Shown piece after piece: positions 48,138-52,739 of a stretch of 64,000 nt of DNA (its first letter is position 1; every line of letters begins with the position of its first letter). The DNA comes from Alphaproteobacteria bacterium. GTDB lineage: Bacteria; Pseudomonadota; Alphaproteobacteria; Micropepsales; Micropepsaceae. The position numbers and the translations under genes are program-made. The stretch is taken from NCBI GenBank assembly GCA_947474645.1, contig CANJJD010000001.1, forward strand, positions 62,001 to 126,000, written 5' to 3'. A model generated the notes under the pieces. It saw nothing but the letters and a program-made list of their open reading frames with translations, searched no databases and was not told the origin of the DNA.

Positions 48138-48214
48138 CGGAGCGTAGCTCAGCCTGGTAGAGCATTAGCTTTGGGAGCTAAGGGCCGTTGGTTCGAATCC
48201 AGCCGCTCCGACCA
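48138..48214 (+). tRNA. tRNA-Pro (anticodon TGG)
   Basis: 77 nt with encoded CCA. The acceptor CGGAGCG pairs with CGCTCCG. The anticodon arm TTAGC-TTTGGGA-GCTAA gives anticodon TGG. The T-arm is GTTGG-TTCGAAT-CCAGC. A strong hairpin begins within the CCA. Confidence 0.97.
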
Positions 48215-48309: not shown

Positions 48310-48615
48310 ATGCGCGCCCGTATCTACAGACCAGCCAAGAACGCCATGCAGTCGGGCAGGGCCCGCACCAAGCAATGGCTGTTGGACTATGAGCCGGAAA
48401 CGGCCCGCACCATCGATCCGCTGATGGGCTGGACGTCGTCGGGCGACATGCGCCAGCAGCTTTGCCTGGAGTTCGACACGGCGGAGGAAGCGGTGGCCTA
48501 TGCCACGGCGCACAACATCCCCTATCAGTTGTTCGAGCCGCATGTGCCCACGCAAAGGCCCAAATCCTATTCGGACAATTTCAAGTTCGACCGCAAGGTG
48601 CCGTGGTCGCATTGA
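48310..48615 (+). CDS. NADH dehydrogenase accessory subunit (NDUFS4-like)
   Basis: A 101-residue accessory subunit of respiratory complex I (the ETC complex I conserved-region family). It starts MRARIYRPAKNAMQSGRART and has WLLDYEPETARTIDPLMGWT, the core SSGDMRQQLCLEFDTAEEAVAYA and the conserved end RPKSYSDNFKFDRKVPWSH. This subunit is shared by mitochondria and Alphaproteobacteria. It is typically a lone gene beside a tRNA, as here. Confidence 0.93.
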   Translation: MRARIYRPAKNAMQSGRARTKQWLLDYEPETARTIDPLMGWTSSGDMRQQLCLEFDTAEEAVAYATAHNIPYQLFEPHVPTQRPKSYSDNFKFDRKVPWSH

Positions 48616-48795
48616 ACCTCGCATGTCATGGCCCGGCTTGACCGGGCCATCCAGCAGGCGAGCGTCCGCGAGCCAATGAATCTGCTTTATGACCATCTGG
48701 ATGGCCCGTTCACACGCTGCCGCTATGAACTTGCGGGCCATGACAAATGGGATCGTGGTGAGAATTTAGGAAATTTGGGGCTAAACTGCCCTTAC

Positions 48796-48837
48796 GACTC
48801 CGTAGCTCAGTTGGATAGAGCACCTGCCTTCTAAGCC
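48796..48837 (+). pseudogene. 5' half of an interrupted tRNA-Arg(TCT)
   Basis: This 42-nt segment has the acceptor 5' strand GACTCCG, D-arm AGCTCAGTTGGATAGAGC and the anticodon stem-loop up to CTTCTAAGCC. Joined to 50267-50301 it makes an exact 77-nt tRNA with CCA. Two positions look decayed: T in the acceptor gives a G-T pair with the 3' half, and T in the anticodon stem (CCTGC against GCCGG) is mismatched. After the junction no sequence completes a cloverleaf, so the gene is dead here. Confidence 0.85.
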
Positions 48838-48951
48838 CGAATACCCGTTATACGGGGAAATTCGATAATTCGGGCTCAAGCCATTTTTTGAGTCCAATCA
48901 ACTGCATGTCTGGTTCGGTTAAAGGTTCCGTCTCGGGTTAGCGAACCGCTC

Positions 48952-48970
48952 GCGTGCCCATGGCGTGCCC
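48952..48970. repeat. Left arm-type repeat pair (GCGTGCCC)
   Basis: Two direct copies of GCGTGCCC at 48952-48959 and 48963-48970, spaced 11 bp start to start, one helical turn. The same 8-mer with the same 11-bp spacing occurs near the right end. This is the pattern of integrase arm-binding sites. Confidence 0.65.
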
Positions 48971-49079
48971 GCGTCAGCTTCACAATTGGCGGCAAATTAA
49001 CGGCATCGTTGCCATCAACGAGGATGCGCTGACTTTACTGGAGAGTAATTCGGCAGCCCAATGGCCACGCCAAAATGTT

Positions 49080-49811
49080 TTATTGGGCTGGTTTGGTCGA
49101 TTTTTCTGCGTCTTTCTTGGCGCGCAGTTCGGCAAGCCCTTTGAATCGCTGCGTCCTTTGCTCCCTGGCGACATACCATTCGTCGAAAAGCGTTTCCACC
49201 AGCTCTATCAGGATTTGAGCTTCGTCAGGATCGATTTCGATGATGAGATCAATGTCCTTTTCCATATGCGCACCGATATTGCCGATTTTGCGAACGTGAT
49301 CGATGGCTTCTACAGATTCTGGGGTCACCCCACGCGGCGCCTTGTCCTCATCGACCATCTTTTGCAACGCTACTATTTCTGCATTCAGCGTGTCCTTTGC
49401 AATCTTAGCGAAGTCGCGGATCATGCCTTGCAGGCACCTGCGCGATAAAGTGGCGCTTGCTTTCGGACTCAGGTCCCGAATCCGGCACGCTTCGACGTAG
49501 TTATCTCGTAGAGGCTTTGGGATGAATTCGGGTTGCGGTTTAGCGCTGGATTCTGGCCAAAGTCCCCAGCGTTGAATAATTCCACCGTTCTTCCAGCCGT
49601 TCGAATATTTTCCGTCTCCACAAAGGGCAAAGTCGATCGTCACCTGCTTACAATGCTTATTCTGGCAAGCGATTGAACGAACCCAAAAACCAAGACCGTC
49701 GCCGCGAGCGTTTTCGCCTACGTTGATCGAGTGTGCTTCGTTGTCGTAATTGTCGCCGCTCACTACCTGTGGTTGCCGACAGTAGGGGCACGTCCAGTTA
49801 AAGCCCGCCAC
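49080..49811 (-). CDS. DUF4145-type protein with N-terminal zinc-ribbon-like segment
   Basis: 243 residues, the only protein gene of the element. The first 60 residues contain CPYC (Cys8, Cys11) and IACQNKHC (Cys49, Cys54), probably a zinc ribbon. The DUF4145 domain follows at about 100-215: YVEACRIRDLSPKASATLSR, RRCLQGMIRDFAKIAKDTLN and VRKIGNIGAHMEKD, with the acidic stretch IDLIIEIDPDEAQILIEL. The end is Lys/Ala-rich. DUF4145 proteins are frequent on mobile elements and near restriction systems, but their activity is unknown; an anti-phage role is only a possibility. The composition is AT-richer than the host genes. Confidence 0.8.
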   Translation of the reverse strand: MAGFNWTCPYCRQPQVVSGDNYDNEAHSINVGENARGDGLGFWVRSIACQNKHCKQVTIDFALCGDGKYSNGWKNGGIIQRWGLWPESSAKPQPEFIPKPLRDNYVEACRIRDLSPKASATLSRRCLQGMIRDFAKIAKDTLNAEIVALQKMVDEDKAPRGVTPESVEAIDHVRKIGNIGAHMEKDIDLIIEIDPDEAQILIELVETLFDEWYVAREQRTQRFKGLAELRAKKDAEKSTKPAQ

Positions 49812-49998
49812 GATTACCTCTTTTCAAAACCATCATCCATAAGCTGCATGTCGAGGACGTTTCGCCCTATTGCTCCGACTTGCGTCGCAACAGTGATCGA
49901 GCGCCATTGCCGGGAGATGCGAAGGCTGCTCGTTTTGCGATGGCGGCTTAAAGTGATTCGTGACGAAACCTGCCTATAAGGCAGGTGGTCATTAGTGG

Positions 49999-50075
49999 TG
50001 GTGATCCCGGCACGACTTGAACGTGCAGCCTCAGACTTAGAAGGTCCGTGCTCTATCCAGTTGAGCTACGGGATC
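49999..50075 (-). tRNA. Element-borne tRNA-Arg (anticodon TCT)
   Basis: A complete 77-nt cloverleaf on the minus strand with encoded CCA. Acceptor GATCCCG pairs perfectly with CGGGATC, D-arm AGCTCAACTGGATAGAGC, anticodon arm CGGAC-CTTCTAA-GTCTG (anticodon TCT, reads AGA), T-arm GCACG-TTCAAGT-CGTGC. All stems are fully paired. It differs from the host gene in every arm, so it is not a local duplicate. It has the same specificity as the tRNA gene the element destroyed, which suggests compensation. Confidence 0.95.
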
Positions 50076-50163
50076 GTTTTTTTGACGGGAGCTTCACCGA
50101 CCACCTGCTCCGCGCTTTCGGAAACATGACAGATAATGCCGCTATTTCAATCGCTTATTGGGT

Positions 50164-50195
50164 GCGTGCCCCCTGCGTGCCCACGCTGGGCACGC
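50164..50195. repeat. Right arm-type repeats (two direct, one inverted GCGTGCCC)
   Basis: GCGTGCCC at 50164-50171 and 50175-50182 (11 bp apart), and its inverse GGGCACGC at 50188-50195, which with the second copy forms a palindrome. They lie 60-90 bp from the right core, mirroring the left end. Confidence 0.65.
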
Positions 50196-50254
50196 GCACG
50201 GAAAAAAGCGCAAAATTACGAGCGAGATAAACGACTTAGATTTTTCTGCAAAAA

Positions 50255-50301
50255 GCCTTCTAAGCCGGTGGTCGCTGGTTCGAATCCAGCCGGGGTCACC
50301 A
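50255..50301 (+). pseudogene. 3' half of an interrupted tRNA-Arg(TCT)
   Basis: The repeat core gccttctaagcc is followed by the variable arm, T-arm GCTGG-TTCGAAT-CCAGC, acceptor CGGGGTC, discriminator A and CCA. The sequence before the core (gatttttctgcaaaaa) is not tRNA-like, so the half has no functional 5' partner in place. Confidence 0.88.
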
Positions 50302-50356
50302 ACTTCACACAAGCTCGGTCATTCCGAGTTGAGCTTTCTGCTATCTGGCGGGCCCT

Positions 50357-51565
50357 TCAGGCCGGAACGCCGGTGAATCGCGAGAACAGCTCTTCCATCA
50401 CGCGCACGGCTCCTTCGGCTTCCGCGCGATCGGGCCTCTCGTTGCTGTTGTTCCAACTCTTCGCGTGTTGAGCGTCGCCTACGGCGATCACCATGATGCC
50501 GTCGCTTTTGGAGCGAGCTTGTACGTTGCGATAGGTCACGCCGTAATTGACCTCCGGCTGGGGGATCAGCCATTCGGTCTGCCCCCGCACCGGGATCATC
50601 GCCTTGTCGCGCCACCAGTCATGCGCGGCATAGCCGGGGCAATTGATGATGATCTTTTCGGGCAGGTGGGCCAGTTCACCTGGCGAATGAAAGTCGCGCA
50701 TCACAACCTTGCCGCCGGCAGCGAAGAAATCGCTGACCAGCAAGTGACCGTACTCGCTGAAATTAAAGTACATTTTGCTTGTACGGGCGGCGTATTTCGC
50801 CGGGAATGGATTGACGTTCGGGGCCAGAATTTCCGGCTTGGGCGTAAGATCCGCAAGGCGGCCTTCCGGCATCCTGAAGAATACGGGAGCAGGCTCGCCG
50901 GATGGCAAGGGCGCCCGCGGCGGAGGGGGTGCATCAAATGGCGTGTCGGAAAGATCATAATGATCACACCAGGCAATGGGATTTCCGGACAGGCCCGTAT
51001 AGAAGCGGTAGGTCTTCAGGGAAATGCGGCACATCTGCTCACATATGTCGGCCAGGTTGGCGGGGGCTTCCGATGCCAGCGCCGCTATCCCTGGTCCCCA
51101 TACGCCGTTGGCGCGCATCGAACGTGTGCGCTGTAACATCTCCCGCGTGTAAATAGTAACTTCAGCTCCGGCCCTCTGGGCTGTCAGGGCGGAAGTAAGA
51201 CCGATGATGCCACAGCCGATCACCGCGACTTTTTTGGGACCGAAGGACATCGCCTTCTGCACCTGCATGTCGGCAGAACCCCAAGACAGCGTCCAGCCAT
51301 CCCCGGCATGGCCGTAATTGTGCACCACCGTGGCATCACCGATTTGTTCGACGCCCAGGTTGGGGCCCTTGGTGCGAAAGGGCCGGATGCAAGACTTGAT
51401 GTCATAGATGCGGTCCACATGCGCCCGGATTGGTGCAAGTACCGGCGGCCGATCTATCAGAGGGACGCGCGCGGCTTGTGCCGTCGCGGTTTGACCCGCA
51501 CCGGCGCCCAGGCCAGTAAGCCCTCCCAGAGCGAACGAATTCTTCAGGAGATTTCGACGATCCAT
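50357..51565 (-). CDS. Tat-exported FAD-dependent oxidoreductase (DAO family)
   Basis: 402 residues from MDRRNLLKNSFALGGLTGLG, a twin-arginine signal with RR in DRRNLLK and an Ala-rich cleavage region. About 90 residues precede the FAD motif KKVAVIGCGIIGLTSALTAQ, an unusually late position for this fold. Further DAO-like parts are MRANGVWGPGIAALA, FHSPGELAHLPEKIIINCPG and GDAQHAKSWNNSNERPDRAEA. It probably oxidises an amine or amino acid in the periplasm after folding with FAD in the cytoplasm. An ATG ten codons upstream is less likely. It is divergent from another Tat protein at 51771. Confidence 0.82.
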   Translation of the reverse strand: MDRRNLLKNSFALGGLTGLGAGAGQTATAQAARVPLIDRPPVLAPIRAHVDRIYDIKSCIRPFRTKGPNLGVEQIGDATVVHNYGHAGDGWTLSWGSADMQVQKAMSFGPKKVAVIGCGIIGLTSALTAQRAGAEVTIYTREMLQRTRSMRANGVWGPGIAALASEAPANLADICEQMCRISLKTYRFYTGLSGNPIAWCDHYDLSDTPFDAPPPPRAPLPSGEPAPVFFRMPEGRLADLTPKPEILAPNVNPFPAKYAARTSKMYFNFSEYGHLLVSDFFAAGGKVVMRDFHSPGELAHLPEKIIINCPGYAAHDWWRDKAMIPVRGQTEWLIPQPEVNYGVTYRNVQARSKSDGIMVIAVGDAQHAKSWNNSNERPDRAEAEGAVRVMEELFSRFTGVPA

Positions 51566-51770
51566 AGCCCCACTCCCCGGATTTAAGTGTTCCACTGGTT
51601 GTTTATGTAGCTTTGGCGTGAATCTCGATCACCGCAACCGCTAATATAAGTAATTGGTACTACTGGCTGATTCGGCGCGCGACAATGCACTTTGATACAA
51701 ATATGCTGGGACCATCGACCTCATCAGACACAGTCGGTTCTGGTGTTGGTTCAGAAAGAAGGGGAGAGAA

Positions 51771-52739
51771 ATGTTAAGCCGTAGAAACCTGATGGGCACT
51801 GGCTTGGCCGCCGCCGCTGTCGCCACCTCCGCGCCGCATGCTTTTGCGCTGCCGGGCGACAAGATCAAATACGCGACCAGCGGCCATCAGTTTATTTCGA
51901 TGGAGCCGCATCCCGATGAGGGCATCAAGATGACGGCCTATTACGGCTATCATGGCATCGAACCTTTTGATGACGAGACGCGGAAATTCCGGGACAAGGG
52001 CCAGAGCTTCCGGGCGCTCAAGGACAAATTGGACGAAGTCGGGCTGCAGCTTTGCACCGTCGGCAGCGGCGGCCAGTATCTGGACCCCACCAAGTTCCAG
52101 GACACACTGAAGAGCAACCTGGACAATGCCCGGTATGTGAAACAGTTCGGCTGCAATCACCTCAAGGTCAATCTCAGCAAACGTCCCAGTGATGCCCGCG
52201 ACATGACACCGGCGGAGCTGAAGGTCATTGCCGGCCATATCAATGAAATCGGCAAGCAAATGGCCGATGTCGGCGTCAGGTTCGCATTCCATCCCCATGC
52301 CTGGACGGTGTGCGAGCGCACGCACGAGCTGGATTACCTGATGGAGAACACCGATCCCCGCTATGTCTGGCTGACCTTCGATCCGGGCCATGCGACCCTG
52401 GGCGGCATCGATCCGATGCGCGTGATGGACATTTATTATTCACGCCTCGCCGCCATGCACCTGAAGGACGCCGAAGCCAAGTACAATGTCCGAAAGGCCG
52501 GCTGGAAGGGCCCGGCACCGAGTCAGGAAGAACATCGCCGAACTCATCTCTATAAGCGCATGGGCGCGGGCGGCGTCGACTTCCCGGGCATCTTCAAGAT
52601 CTTGCGCGCCAAACAGTGGAGCGGCTGGGCGACGCTCGACTTCAATGCCGAAGGGCGTGACGGCACCATTCAGGACGATATGACCCGCCACAAGAAGTAT
52701 CTGGTGGAAGTCTTGAAGGCCGACCTCAAGCACATCTGA
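51771..52739 (+). CDS. Tat-exported sugar isomerase/epimerase-like TIM barrel
   Basis: 322 residues beginning MLSRRNLMGTGLAAAAVATS, a twin-arginine signal. The TIM barrel resembles the xylose isomerase-like AP endonuclease 2 family: YYGYHGIEPFDDETRKF, HLKVNLSKR, RFAFHPHAWTVCERTHELDY, WLTFDPGHATLGGIDP and AAMHLKDAEAKY, giving the acidic and His residues of the metal site. It probably acts on a sugar or polyol outside the cytoplasm. GAAAGAAGGGGAGAGAA precedes the start. It is divergent from the Tat-exported flavoprotein, with 205 bp between starts. Confidence 0.87.
   Translation: MLSRRNLMGTGLAAAAVATSAPHAFALPGDKIKYATSGHQFISMEPHPDEGIKMTAYYGYHGIEPFDDETRKFRDKGQSFRALKDKLDEVGLQLCTVGSGGQYLDPTKFQDTLKSNLDNARYVKQFGCNHLKVNLSKRPSDARDMTPAELKVIAGHINEIGKQMADVGVRFAFHPHAWTVCERTHELDYLMENTDPRYVWLTFDPGHATLGGIDPMRVMDIYYSRLAAMHLKDAEAKYNVRKAGWKGPAPSQEEHRRTHLYKRMGAGGVDFPGIFKILRAKQWSGWATLDFNAEGRDGTIQDDMTRHKKYLVEVLKADLKHI

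What the first reader, a model, noticed from the sequence alone, without database searches (positions are those of the whole stretch)
48796..50301. An element splits a tRNA-Arg(UCU) gene and supplies a different tRNA-Arg(UCU) in antisense
Seen directly: a 12-bp direct repeat (gccttctaagcc) bounds about 1.43 kb; joining 48796-48837 to 50267-50301 gives exactly 77 nt of a canonical tRNA-Arg(TCT). Neither junction restores a cloverleaf, so the host gene is broken. Inside, on the opposite strand at 49999-50075, is a perfectly paired tRNA-Arg with the same TCT anticodon but different sequence in every arm. Known: most tRNA-targeting integrative elements carry a replacement 3' end and rebuild the host gene. 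Inference: this one instead disrupts the gene and offers a whole substitute tRNA, making its retention potentially essential for reading AGA codons, an addiction-like strategy.
Basis: partly seen in the sequence, partly recalled or inferred. Interest (0 to 1): 0.87.

Follow-up and report, generated by a model that had tools for sequence, protein, structure and literature searches.

The report
Mini-element swaps host arginine tRNA
A 1.4-kb piece of foreign DNA has cut what looks like the bacterium's only gene for one arginine tRNA in half and brought its own complete copy of that tRNA; the trick is known from phages, but here the element is tiny and carries no integrase gene.

Summary
A 1,429-bp insert (48838-50266), bounded by a 12-bp direct repeat, splits the host tRNA-Arg(UCU) gene at its anticodon loop. 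A congener (G001) has the exact, uninterrupted 77-nt gene beside the same upstream genes. The insert encodes on the opposite strand a complete tRNA-Arg(UCU), 58/77 identical to the host's and the only intact one found in the 54-contig genome. Neither junction reaches a tRNA score.

Both ends carry direct pairs of GCGTGCCC 11 bp apart, at distances from the core similar to those in phage attP sites, so a tyrosine integrase most likely put it there. No integrase was found in the insert; its only recognised protein is DUF4145 (HEPN-family, PD-T7-4-like).

The principle is not new: it is 'tRNA-dependent lysogeny' (Guerrero-Bustamante & Hatfull 2024), also reported in Sinorhizobium. Six phages of Pseudomonas and enterobacteria show the same arrangement: whole tRNA-Arg(UCU), ~11-bp core, integrase. 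What is new is a non-phage, two-gene, integrase-less element that leaves the host with a foreign tRNA as its only visible AGA reader. Host dependence is inferred. Whether it is a dedicated non-autonomous element or a deletion remnant is open.

The parts
48796..48837 (+). 5' half of the broken host tRNA-Arg(UCU) gene, ending in the left copy of the 12-bp core (attL side)
   Evidence: 100% identical to the intact gene of G001; no tRNA called here
50267..50301 (+). 3' half of the broken host tRNA-Arg(UCU) gene with CCA (attR side)
   Evidence: With the right core copy, identical to the intact gene of G001
48826..48837 (+). Left copy of the 12-bp common core GCCTTCTAAGCC (anticodon stem-loop)
   Evidence: Read directly
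50255..50266 (+). Right copy of the 12-bp common core
   Evidence: Read directly
48838..50266 (.). The inserted element (1,429 bp, about 52% G+C against 61-62% in the flanks)
   Evidence: Absent from G001, whose 77-nt gene is uninterrupted; composition
48952..48970 (+). Left arm-type pair GCGTGCCC-N3-GCGTGCCC
   Evidence: position relative to core
50164..50182 (+). Right arm-type pair GCGTGCCC-N3-GCGTGCCC
50188..50195 (-). Fifth GCGTGCCC copy, inverted
   Evidence: 5 of the 6 copies in the 64-kb window are in the element ends
49999..50075 (-). Complete element-borne tRNA-Arg(UCU), CCA encoded
   Evidence: ARAGORN; Rfam 65.7 bits
49968..49986 (-). 8-bp hairpin just downstream of the element tRNA, possible transcript end (no T run to speak of; the terminator scan found none)
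   Evidence: Fold, letters; scan
49080..49811 (-). 243-aa DUF4145 (HEPN-family) protein with four invariant cysteines, PD-T7-4-like
   Evidence: Pfam 2.9e-10; PADLOC PD-T7-4 1.3e-12; alignment; fold
48138..48214 (+). Host tRNA-Pro(UGG), syntenic marker upstream of the site
   Evidence: Next to intact tRNA-Arg(UCU) in G001 and other relatives; flank homology

Best explanation
This is a tiny non-autonomous integrative element that uses tRNA-dependent integration. [quoted passage not shown] A tyrosine integrase, supplied in trans or by a gene the element later lost, recombined it into the host tRNA-Arg(UCU) gene (insertion at this site shown; recombinase inferred). Because the shared core is only 12 bp, the host gene is broken at both junctions (shown). 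The element's own tRNA-Arg(UCU) gene takes over decoding of AGA (intact gene shown; expression and function inferred). Imprecise loss of the element should therefore be lethal or very costly, while precise excision would restore the host gene (inferred). The remaining cargo, a DUF4145/HEPN-family protein of the PD-T7-4 kind, probably serves in phage defence (inferred).
For: Exact uninterrupted 77-nt gene in G001, with the upstream flank syntenic and 83-93% identical. In the family, 48 of 96 genomes match a tRNA-Arg(UCU) 5'-half pattern; in the 47 other than G000 every such gene is intact (46 by the longer pattern, G099 by eye), and only G000 has an unpaired 5' half. In G000 the sole intact UCU gene found is the element's. 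Arm pairs at both ends: 2 found, 0 in 100 shuffles with one mismatch allowed; 5 of 6 GCGTGCCC copies of the window lie there. Arm positions of -91/-80 and +126/+137 from the core are close to those of phage attP sites, e.g. about -84/-72 and +140/+152 in Persinger. Six phages (Persinger, MQ-4, PPpW-3, PT1, Alux-21, HeidiAbel_Bas97) have a whole tRNA-Arg(UCU), an ~11-bp GCCTTCTAAGC core without the tRNA 3' half, and a neighbouring integrase gene. The principle is shown by experiment in mycobacteriophages (PMC10865867).
Against: No integrase found in the element. The genome's three PF00589 hits are two of 306-307 aa, taken as XerC/D by length, and one of 377 aa beside tRNA-Ser with no paired arm sites in the stretch held, so no helper is visible. 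No relative of the whole element among 60 other genomes, by the best match per genome, and its attachment-end pattern occurs in no other of 96 genomes of the order or 385 of the class. The core lies in the opposite orientation relative to the element tRNA compared with the six phages. The right flank is not syntenic with the relatives, so only the left side and the tRNA itself mark the empty site. No promoter-like or terminator-like site was called in 48600-50450.
Confidence: 0.8

Rival explanations
1. Deletion remnant: a prophage or island with the usual tRNA-dependent module (tRNA, attP, integrase) integrated here and later lost its integrase and nearly everything else. The host tRNA was already broken, so the two att ends and the tRNA were retained.
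For: Element order tRNA-arms-core-arms matches phages whose integrase lies beyond the far arm pair, where the element has nothing recognisable. [quoted passage not shown] No helper seen in the genome.
Against: No integrase remnant by tblastn with five integrases (best E 0.73). The DUF4145 gene is open, and the broken tRNA halves are identical to G001, which suggests a recent event.
Confidence: 0.4
2. Dedicated non-autonomous element moved by phage or island integrases in trans, like a MITE or satellite for site-specific recombination.
For: Compact, both arm pairs complete, intact cargo, precise ends.
Against: Single copy; no relative of the whole element in 60 other genomes, nor in the plasmid and phage collections beyond tRNA-sized matches.
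Confidence: 0.4
3. Intron or split tRNA: the two host halves are joined at RNA level, so the gene is not broken.
For: The break is in the anticodon loop, where tRNA introns sit (recalled).
Against: No intron family among the six Rfam matches at E up to 5; 1.43 kb with an antisense complete tRNA and repeat pairs does not look like an intron.
Confidence: 0.03
4. Transposon insertion with a 12-bp target duplication, or an assembly chimera.
For: Direct repeat at both ends; draft assembly of 54 contigs.
Against: No transposase match for the two insert ORFs tested; the repeat is the anticodon stem-loop that phages use as core; arm pairs at phage-like distances; contig C1 is 227 kb and the left flank is syntenic. 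The right flank gives no such support.
Confidence: 0.03

Closest known systems
tRNA-dependent lysogeny of actinobacteriophages (Fionnbharth, LeBron, Gaia and others; PMC10865867)
   Same: Short core (8-17 bp for the positive phages of their Table 2; 12 here), host tRNA not rebuilt, same-isotype tRNA carried by the element, putative arm-site pairs flanking the core
   Different: Those are complete temperate phages with their own integrase, and the need for the tRNA was shown with mutants; this is a 1.43-kb non-phage insert without integrase, in another group of bacteria, with no experiment
Phage-related sequences of Sinorhizobium meliloti that replace an inactivated tRNA gene (PMC11476347, discussion read)
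   Same: Inactivated host tRNA gene replaced by an element tRNA that resembles those of other bacteria
   Different: The authors state that all site-specifically integrated sequences harboured an integrase gene
Phages Persinger, PPpW-3, PT1, Alux-21, HeidiAbel_Bas97 and MQ-4
   Same: Same tRNA isoacceptor, same anticodon-loop core, no tRNA 3' half in attP, repeat pairs at similar distances
   Different: Carry an integrase (Arm-DNA-bind_3 domain shown for Persinger and MQ-4; the others by tblastn similarity); other arm sequences; core oriented along the phage tRNA, not against it
Ordinary tRNA-targeting phages and islands, such as the attP sites in L119, L123 and L124
   Same: tRNA-Arg(UCU) anticodon-loop core; GTGCCC pairs 11 bp apart
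   Different: Carry the tRNA 3' half and would rebuild the host gene
PD-T7-4 / DUF4145 HEPN-family proteins
   Same: Pfam and PADLOC matches
   Different: Defence activity untested; the invariant R and H have seven residues between them, more than the usual HEPN motif spacing as I recall it

Membership tests
tRNA-dependent lysogeny | attB overlaps a host tRNA gene | tested here: met
   Intact gene in G001, split here
tRNA-dependent lysogeny | Short common core, host tRNA not rebuilt at either junction | tested here: met
   12 bp; junctions 21.7 and 20.0 bits, gathering 29
[quoted passage not shown]
   tRNA-Arg(TCT), 65.7 bits
tRNA-dependent lysogeny | Disrupted host tRNA is the only one of its kind | tested here: met
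   No other UCU gene among the 41 found; the assembly lacks some tRNAs, so not absolute
tRNA-dependent lysogeny | Element encodes a tyrosine integrase | tested here: not met
   No integrase domain in the two ORFs tested, no fragment by tblastn with five integrases
tRNA-dependent lysogeny | Element is a temperate phage | tested here: not met
   1,429 bp; one recognised protein gene
tRNA-dependent lysogeny | Element tRNA needed for survival of integrants | not testable with these tools
   Needs a deletion or swap experiment
Canonical tRNA-targeting genomic island | Host tRNA rebuilt by element-borne 3' end | tested here: not met
   Sequence after the left core is not a tRNA 3' half
PD-T7-4 defence system | Sequence match to the PADLOC model | tested here: met
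   45.6 bits, 1.3e-12, residues 47-230
PD-T7-4 defence system | Protects against phage | not testable with these tools
   No assay
HEPN superfamily | HEPN fold | tested here: inconclusive
   DUF4145 is placed in HEPN by PMC3710099 (passages); model pLDDT 85.8; PDB 2hsb prob 0.98, TM 0.67 by target, but E 0.17 and no match with E <= 0.001
Group I/II intron | Intron RNA structure | tested here: not met
   No Rfam intron match, E up to 5

The most novel reading that the evidence does not exclude
The element is one of a so far unrecognised kind of integrase-less 'tRNA-swap' defence islets. It hitchhikes on phage or island integrases, breaks an essential tRNA gene and holds the host by being its only source of that tRNA. 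Its HEPN-type protein and its tRNA form a functional pair: the protein cleaves tRNA during infection and the substitute tRNA is the version it spares.
Probability: 0.06. Interest if true: 0.85.

Novelty: new variant of a known kind. Interest (0 to 1): 0.52.

Why it matters
It suggests that tRNA-dependent integration is not confined to whole phages with their own integrase. A two-gene insert can carry the trick, and a chromosome can end up with a foreign tRNA as its only visible reader of a codon. That is a testable route for non-orthologous replacement of tRNA genes and for locking a defence-type gene into a genome. The phages of Pseudomonas and enterobacteria found on the way bear on the question, left open in PMC10865867, of how far the strategy extends beyond Actinobacteria, and offer tractable systems for testing it.

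Tried and rejected
Rejected: intron or trans-spliced tRNA; reconstruction of the host gene at either junction. The other weak Rfam matches in the insert (HPnc0260, Plastid-ycf2, GNAS-AS1_3) lie far below their cut-offs and were ignored. Doubtful copy numbers in other genomes: G309 and G334 look like one gene repeated at contig ends, G270 has two complete genes; G010 has two complete genes; G099 is complete with a T-loop variant.

Led nowhere: of the four arm-pair hits in 96 family genomes two are the element ends; the other two have no TTCTAAG core and no tRNA in the 3 kb held (G113 inside a gene, G093 apparently between two genes). Six of nine viral hits are one repeated stretch without tRNA context, read as chance; both hits are one stretch and look coding. 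DUF4145 homologues (18 genome loci, 16 viral loci): none with a tRNA-Arg in the stretch held. An integrase motif found beside 1 of 34 homologues comes from a crude regex, whose first version found none, so it says little about the PMC9519451 statement. The Persinger integrase finds only 3 viral contigs, one of them Persinger itself by its length and 100% identity; the other two show no tRNA. The promoter and terminator scan gave nothing. Paper searches for an integrase-less element of this kind or for these phages' tRNA use listed none beyond PMC10865867 and PMC11476347; I judged by titles and abstract starts, and only open-licence PMC papers are held. PMC12429752 (passages) reports that phiLM21-like prophages do not show tRNA-dependent lysogeny; PMC13028781 only cites the concept.

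Not done: no name was obtained for the host organism; that it belongs to Alphaproteobacteria is my inference from the closest named relatives of its protein and tRNA.

Full report
WHAT IS THERE. The 12-mer GCCTTCTAAGCC stands at 48826-48837 and 50255-50266 and bounds the insert; insert plus one repeat copy make 1,429 bp. Without them a 77-nt tRNA-Arg(UCU) gene remains. That exact 77-mer exists uninterrupted in relative G001 (locus L002), 1 of 19 relative loci tested. Upstream of it lie the same tRNA-Pro(UGG) gene and flank, 83-93% identical. The broken halves show no substitution against G001, so the insertion is probably recent compared with the split of the two species (inference). The sequence to the right of the gene in the window matches none of the 19 relative loci; some of these share stretches among themselves, and G001 keeps its relative of the right-flank gene on another contig. 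So synteny rests on the left side.

THE HOST GENE IS BROKEN AND REPLACED. ARAGORN finds no tRNA at the split gene, but a complete tRNA-Arg(TCT) at 49999-50075 minus (Rfam 65.7 bits). The two junctions score 21.7 and 20.0 bits, below the cut-off of 29. The two tRNAs agree at 58 of 77 positions. An Rfam search of the 2.64-Mb, 54-contig genome found 41 tRNA genes; ARAGORN on all 41 gave only one with anticodon UCU, the element's. The other arginine anticodons found are ACG, CCG and CCU, none of which should read AGA (established knowledge). Caveat: Trp, Ile(GAU), Ala(UGC) and Gln(UUG) genes are also missing from this list, so the assembly has gaps. AGA is rare but used: 2 of 191 arginine codons in six long ORFs of the window (a small sample).

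HOW UNUSUAL IT IS. In a class-wide sample, 253 of 385 genomes match a 5'-half pattern for this tRNA; the other 132 say nothing. In the per-genome counts I read four with two matches: G000; G270 with two complete genes; G309 and G334, which look like one gene repeated at contig ends. In the family, 48 of 96 genomes match. A longer pattern that needs the T arm matches in 47, G000 among them by the element's own tRNA; the one lost, G099, is intact with a T-loop variant. So, of the 48, G000 alone has an unpaired half.

THE ENDS LOOK LIKE AN attP. GCGTGCCC occurs 6 times in the 64-kb window, fewer than the 9.7 expected, yet 5 of the 6 are in the element ends. It forms direct pairs 11 bp apart on both sides (48952/48963 and 50164/50175) plus one inverted copy at 50188. 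The paired pattern was found twice and in none of 100 shuffles. Of 303 other windows of 409 bp, 2 have any 8-mer five times or more. If the ends are joined as a circle, the pairs lie at -91/-80 and +126/+137 from the core; in phage Persinger at about -84/-72 and +140/+152 (phage positions are good to about 10 bp). Viral attP sites L119, L123 and L124 use the same core and GTGCCC pairs 11 bp apart, but carry the tRNA 3' half and so would rebuild the gene.

PHAGES WITH THE SAME SCHEME. A search with the insert led to Persinger and MQ-4, which carry tRNA-Arg next to an integrase (annotated in Persinger, by Pfam in MQ-4). The Persinger integrase matches 166 phage records, of which I examined ten phages. 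Six of ten (Persinger, MQ-4, PPpW-3, PT1, Alux-21, HeidiAbel_Bas97) have a whole tRNA-Arg(UCU) and, 121-126 bp away (179 bp in the element), an ~11-bp core GCCTTCTAAGC without the tRNA 3' half. One (Mano) has tRNA-Lys(UUU) with a GACTTTTAA core. Mica has only a tRNA-like stretch without a proper anticodon; KA2-1 and Alexa have none within 1.5 kb of the integrase. Two of the six were found through the tRNA; among the eight chosen by integrase similarity the scheme is in five. The hosts' tRNA genes were not examined here, so disruption by these phages is inferred.

THE CARGO. The 243-aa protein is DUF4145 (Pfam 2.9e-10), PD-T7-4-like (1.3e-12) and PHROG 1305, 'DNA binding protein' (3.9e-32). Sixteen aligned sequences share four cysteines (7, 10, 48, 53) and an invariant R...NIGAH block. 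DUF4145 is placed in the HEPN superfamily by PMC3710099 (passages). The model (pLDDT 85.8) matches a HEPN structure with probability 0.98 but E 0.17. Sixteen IMG/VR viral contigs encode relatives. [quoted passage not shown]

NO INTEGRASE. None in the insert by Pfam on its two larger ORFs or by tblastn with five integrases. The genome has three PF00589 hits: 307 aa, 306 aa and 377 aa, the last beside tRNA-Ser(GCU) and without paired arm sites. I take the first two as XerC/D from their length alone. The attachment-end pattern occurs in no other of 96 genomes of the order or 385 of the class.

COMPARISON WITH WHAT IS KNOWN. Guerrero-Bustamante and Hatfull (PMC10865867; abstract, sections 10 and 11 and passages read) define tRNA-dependent lysogeny: short core, no reconstruction, phage tRNA of the same isotype, shown by mutants to be needed. 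PMC11476347 (discussion read) reports replacement of inactivated tRNA genes by phage-related sequences in S. meliloti, and says that all site-specifically integrated ones carried an integrase. This case works like tRNA-dependent lysogeny but is not a member, because integrase and phage genes were looked for and not found. It is a variant: a minimal, non-phage element.

WHAT IS OPEN. Whether it is a dedicated hitchhiker or the remnant of a larger element cannot be decided from one copy. Dependence of the host on the element is a strong inference, not shown. A link between the HEPN-type protein and the tRNA is speculation.

Noticed in passing
L084, L085, L165-L168 (phages MQ-4, Persinger, PPpW-3, PT1, Alux-21, HeidiAbel_Bas97): Whole tRNA-Arg(UCU) 121-126 bp from an ~11-bp anticodon-loop core with repeat pairs and a neighbouring integrase: candidates for tRNA-dependent lysogeny in phages of Pseudomonas and enterobacteria.
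   Followed up: partly
L171:1197-1340: Achromobacter phage Mano carries tRNA-Lys(UUU) and a GACTTTTAA core beside its integrase: the same scheme with another tRNA.
   Followed up: partly
window 48796-48837 + 50267-50301 and relatives: The host-type tRNA-Arg(UCU) has a T29-C41 mismatch in the anticodon stem that several relatives share (CCTGC...GCCGG).
   Followed up: partly
window 50302-52300: DNA downstream of the tRNA-Arg gene matches none of 19 relative loci while the upstream side is conserved, as at an integration hotspot.
   Followed up: partly
L134 (G000:C18:46907-47368): A 377-aa tyrosine integrase next to tRNA-Ser(GCU) in the same genome: probably another island or prophage.
   Followed up: no
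L057:5838-6768: In Sphingomonas sp. Root720 a DUF4145 homologue starts about 70 bp downstream of tRNA-Pro(CGG), which may mean the gene travels on tRNA-associated islands.
   Followed up: no
L128, L131 (G270:C15 and C28): A 0.8-Mb genome with two complete, slightly different tRNA-Arg(UCU) genes, rare in this sample.
   Followed up: no
window 48838-48900: Just inside the left end the predicted fold has two hairpins, which might stop transcripts of the broken 5' half.
   Followed up: partly
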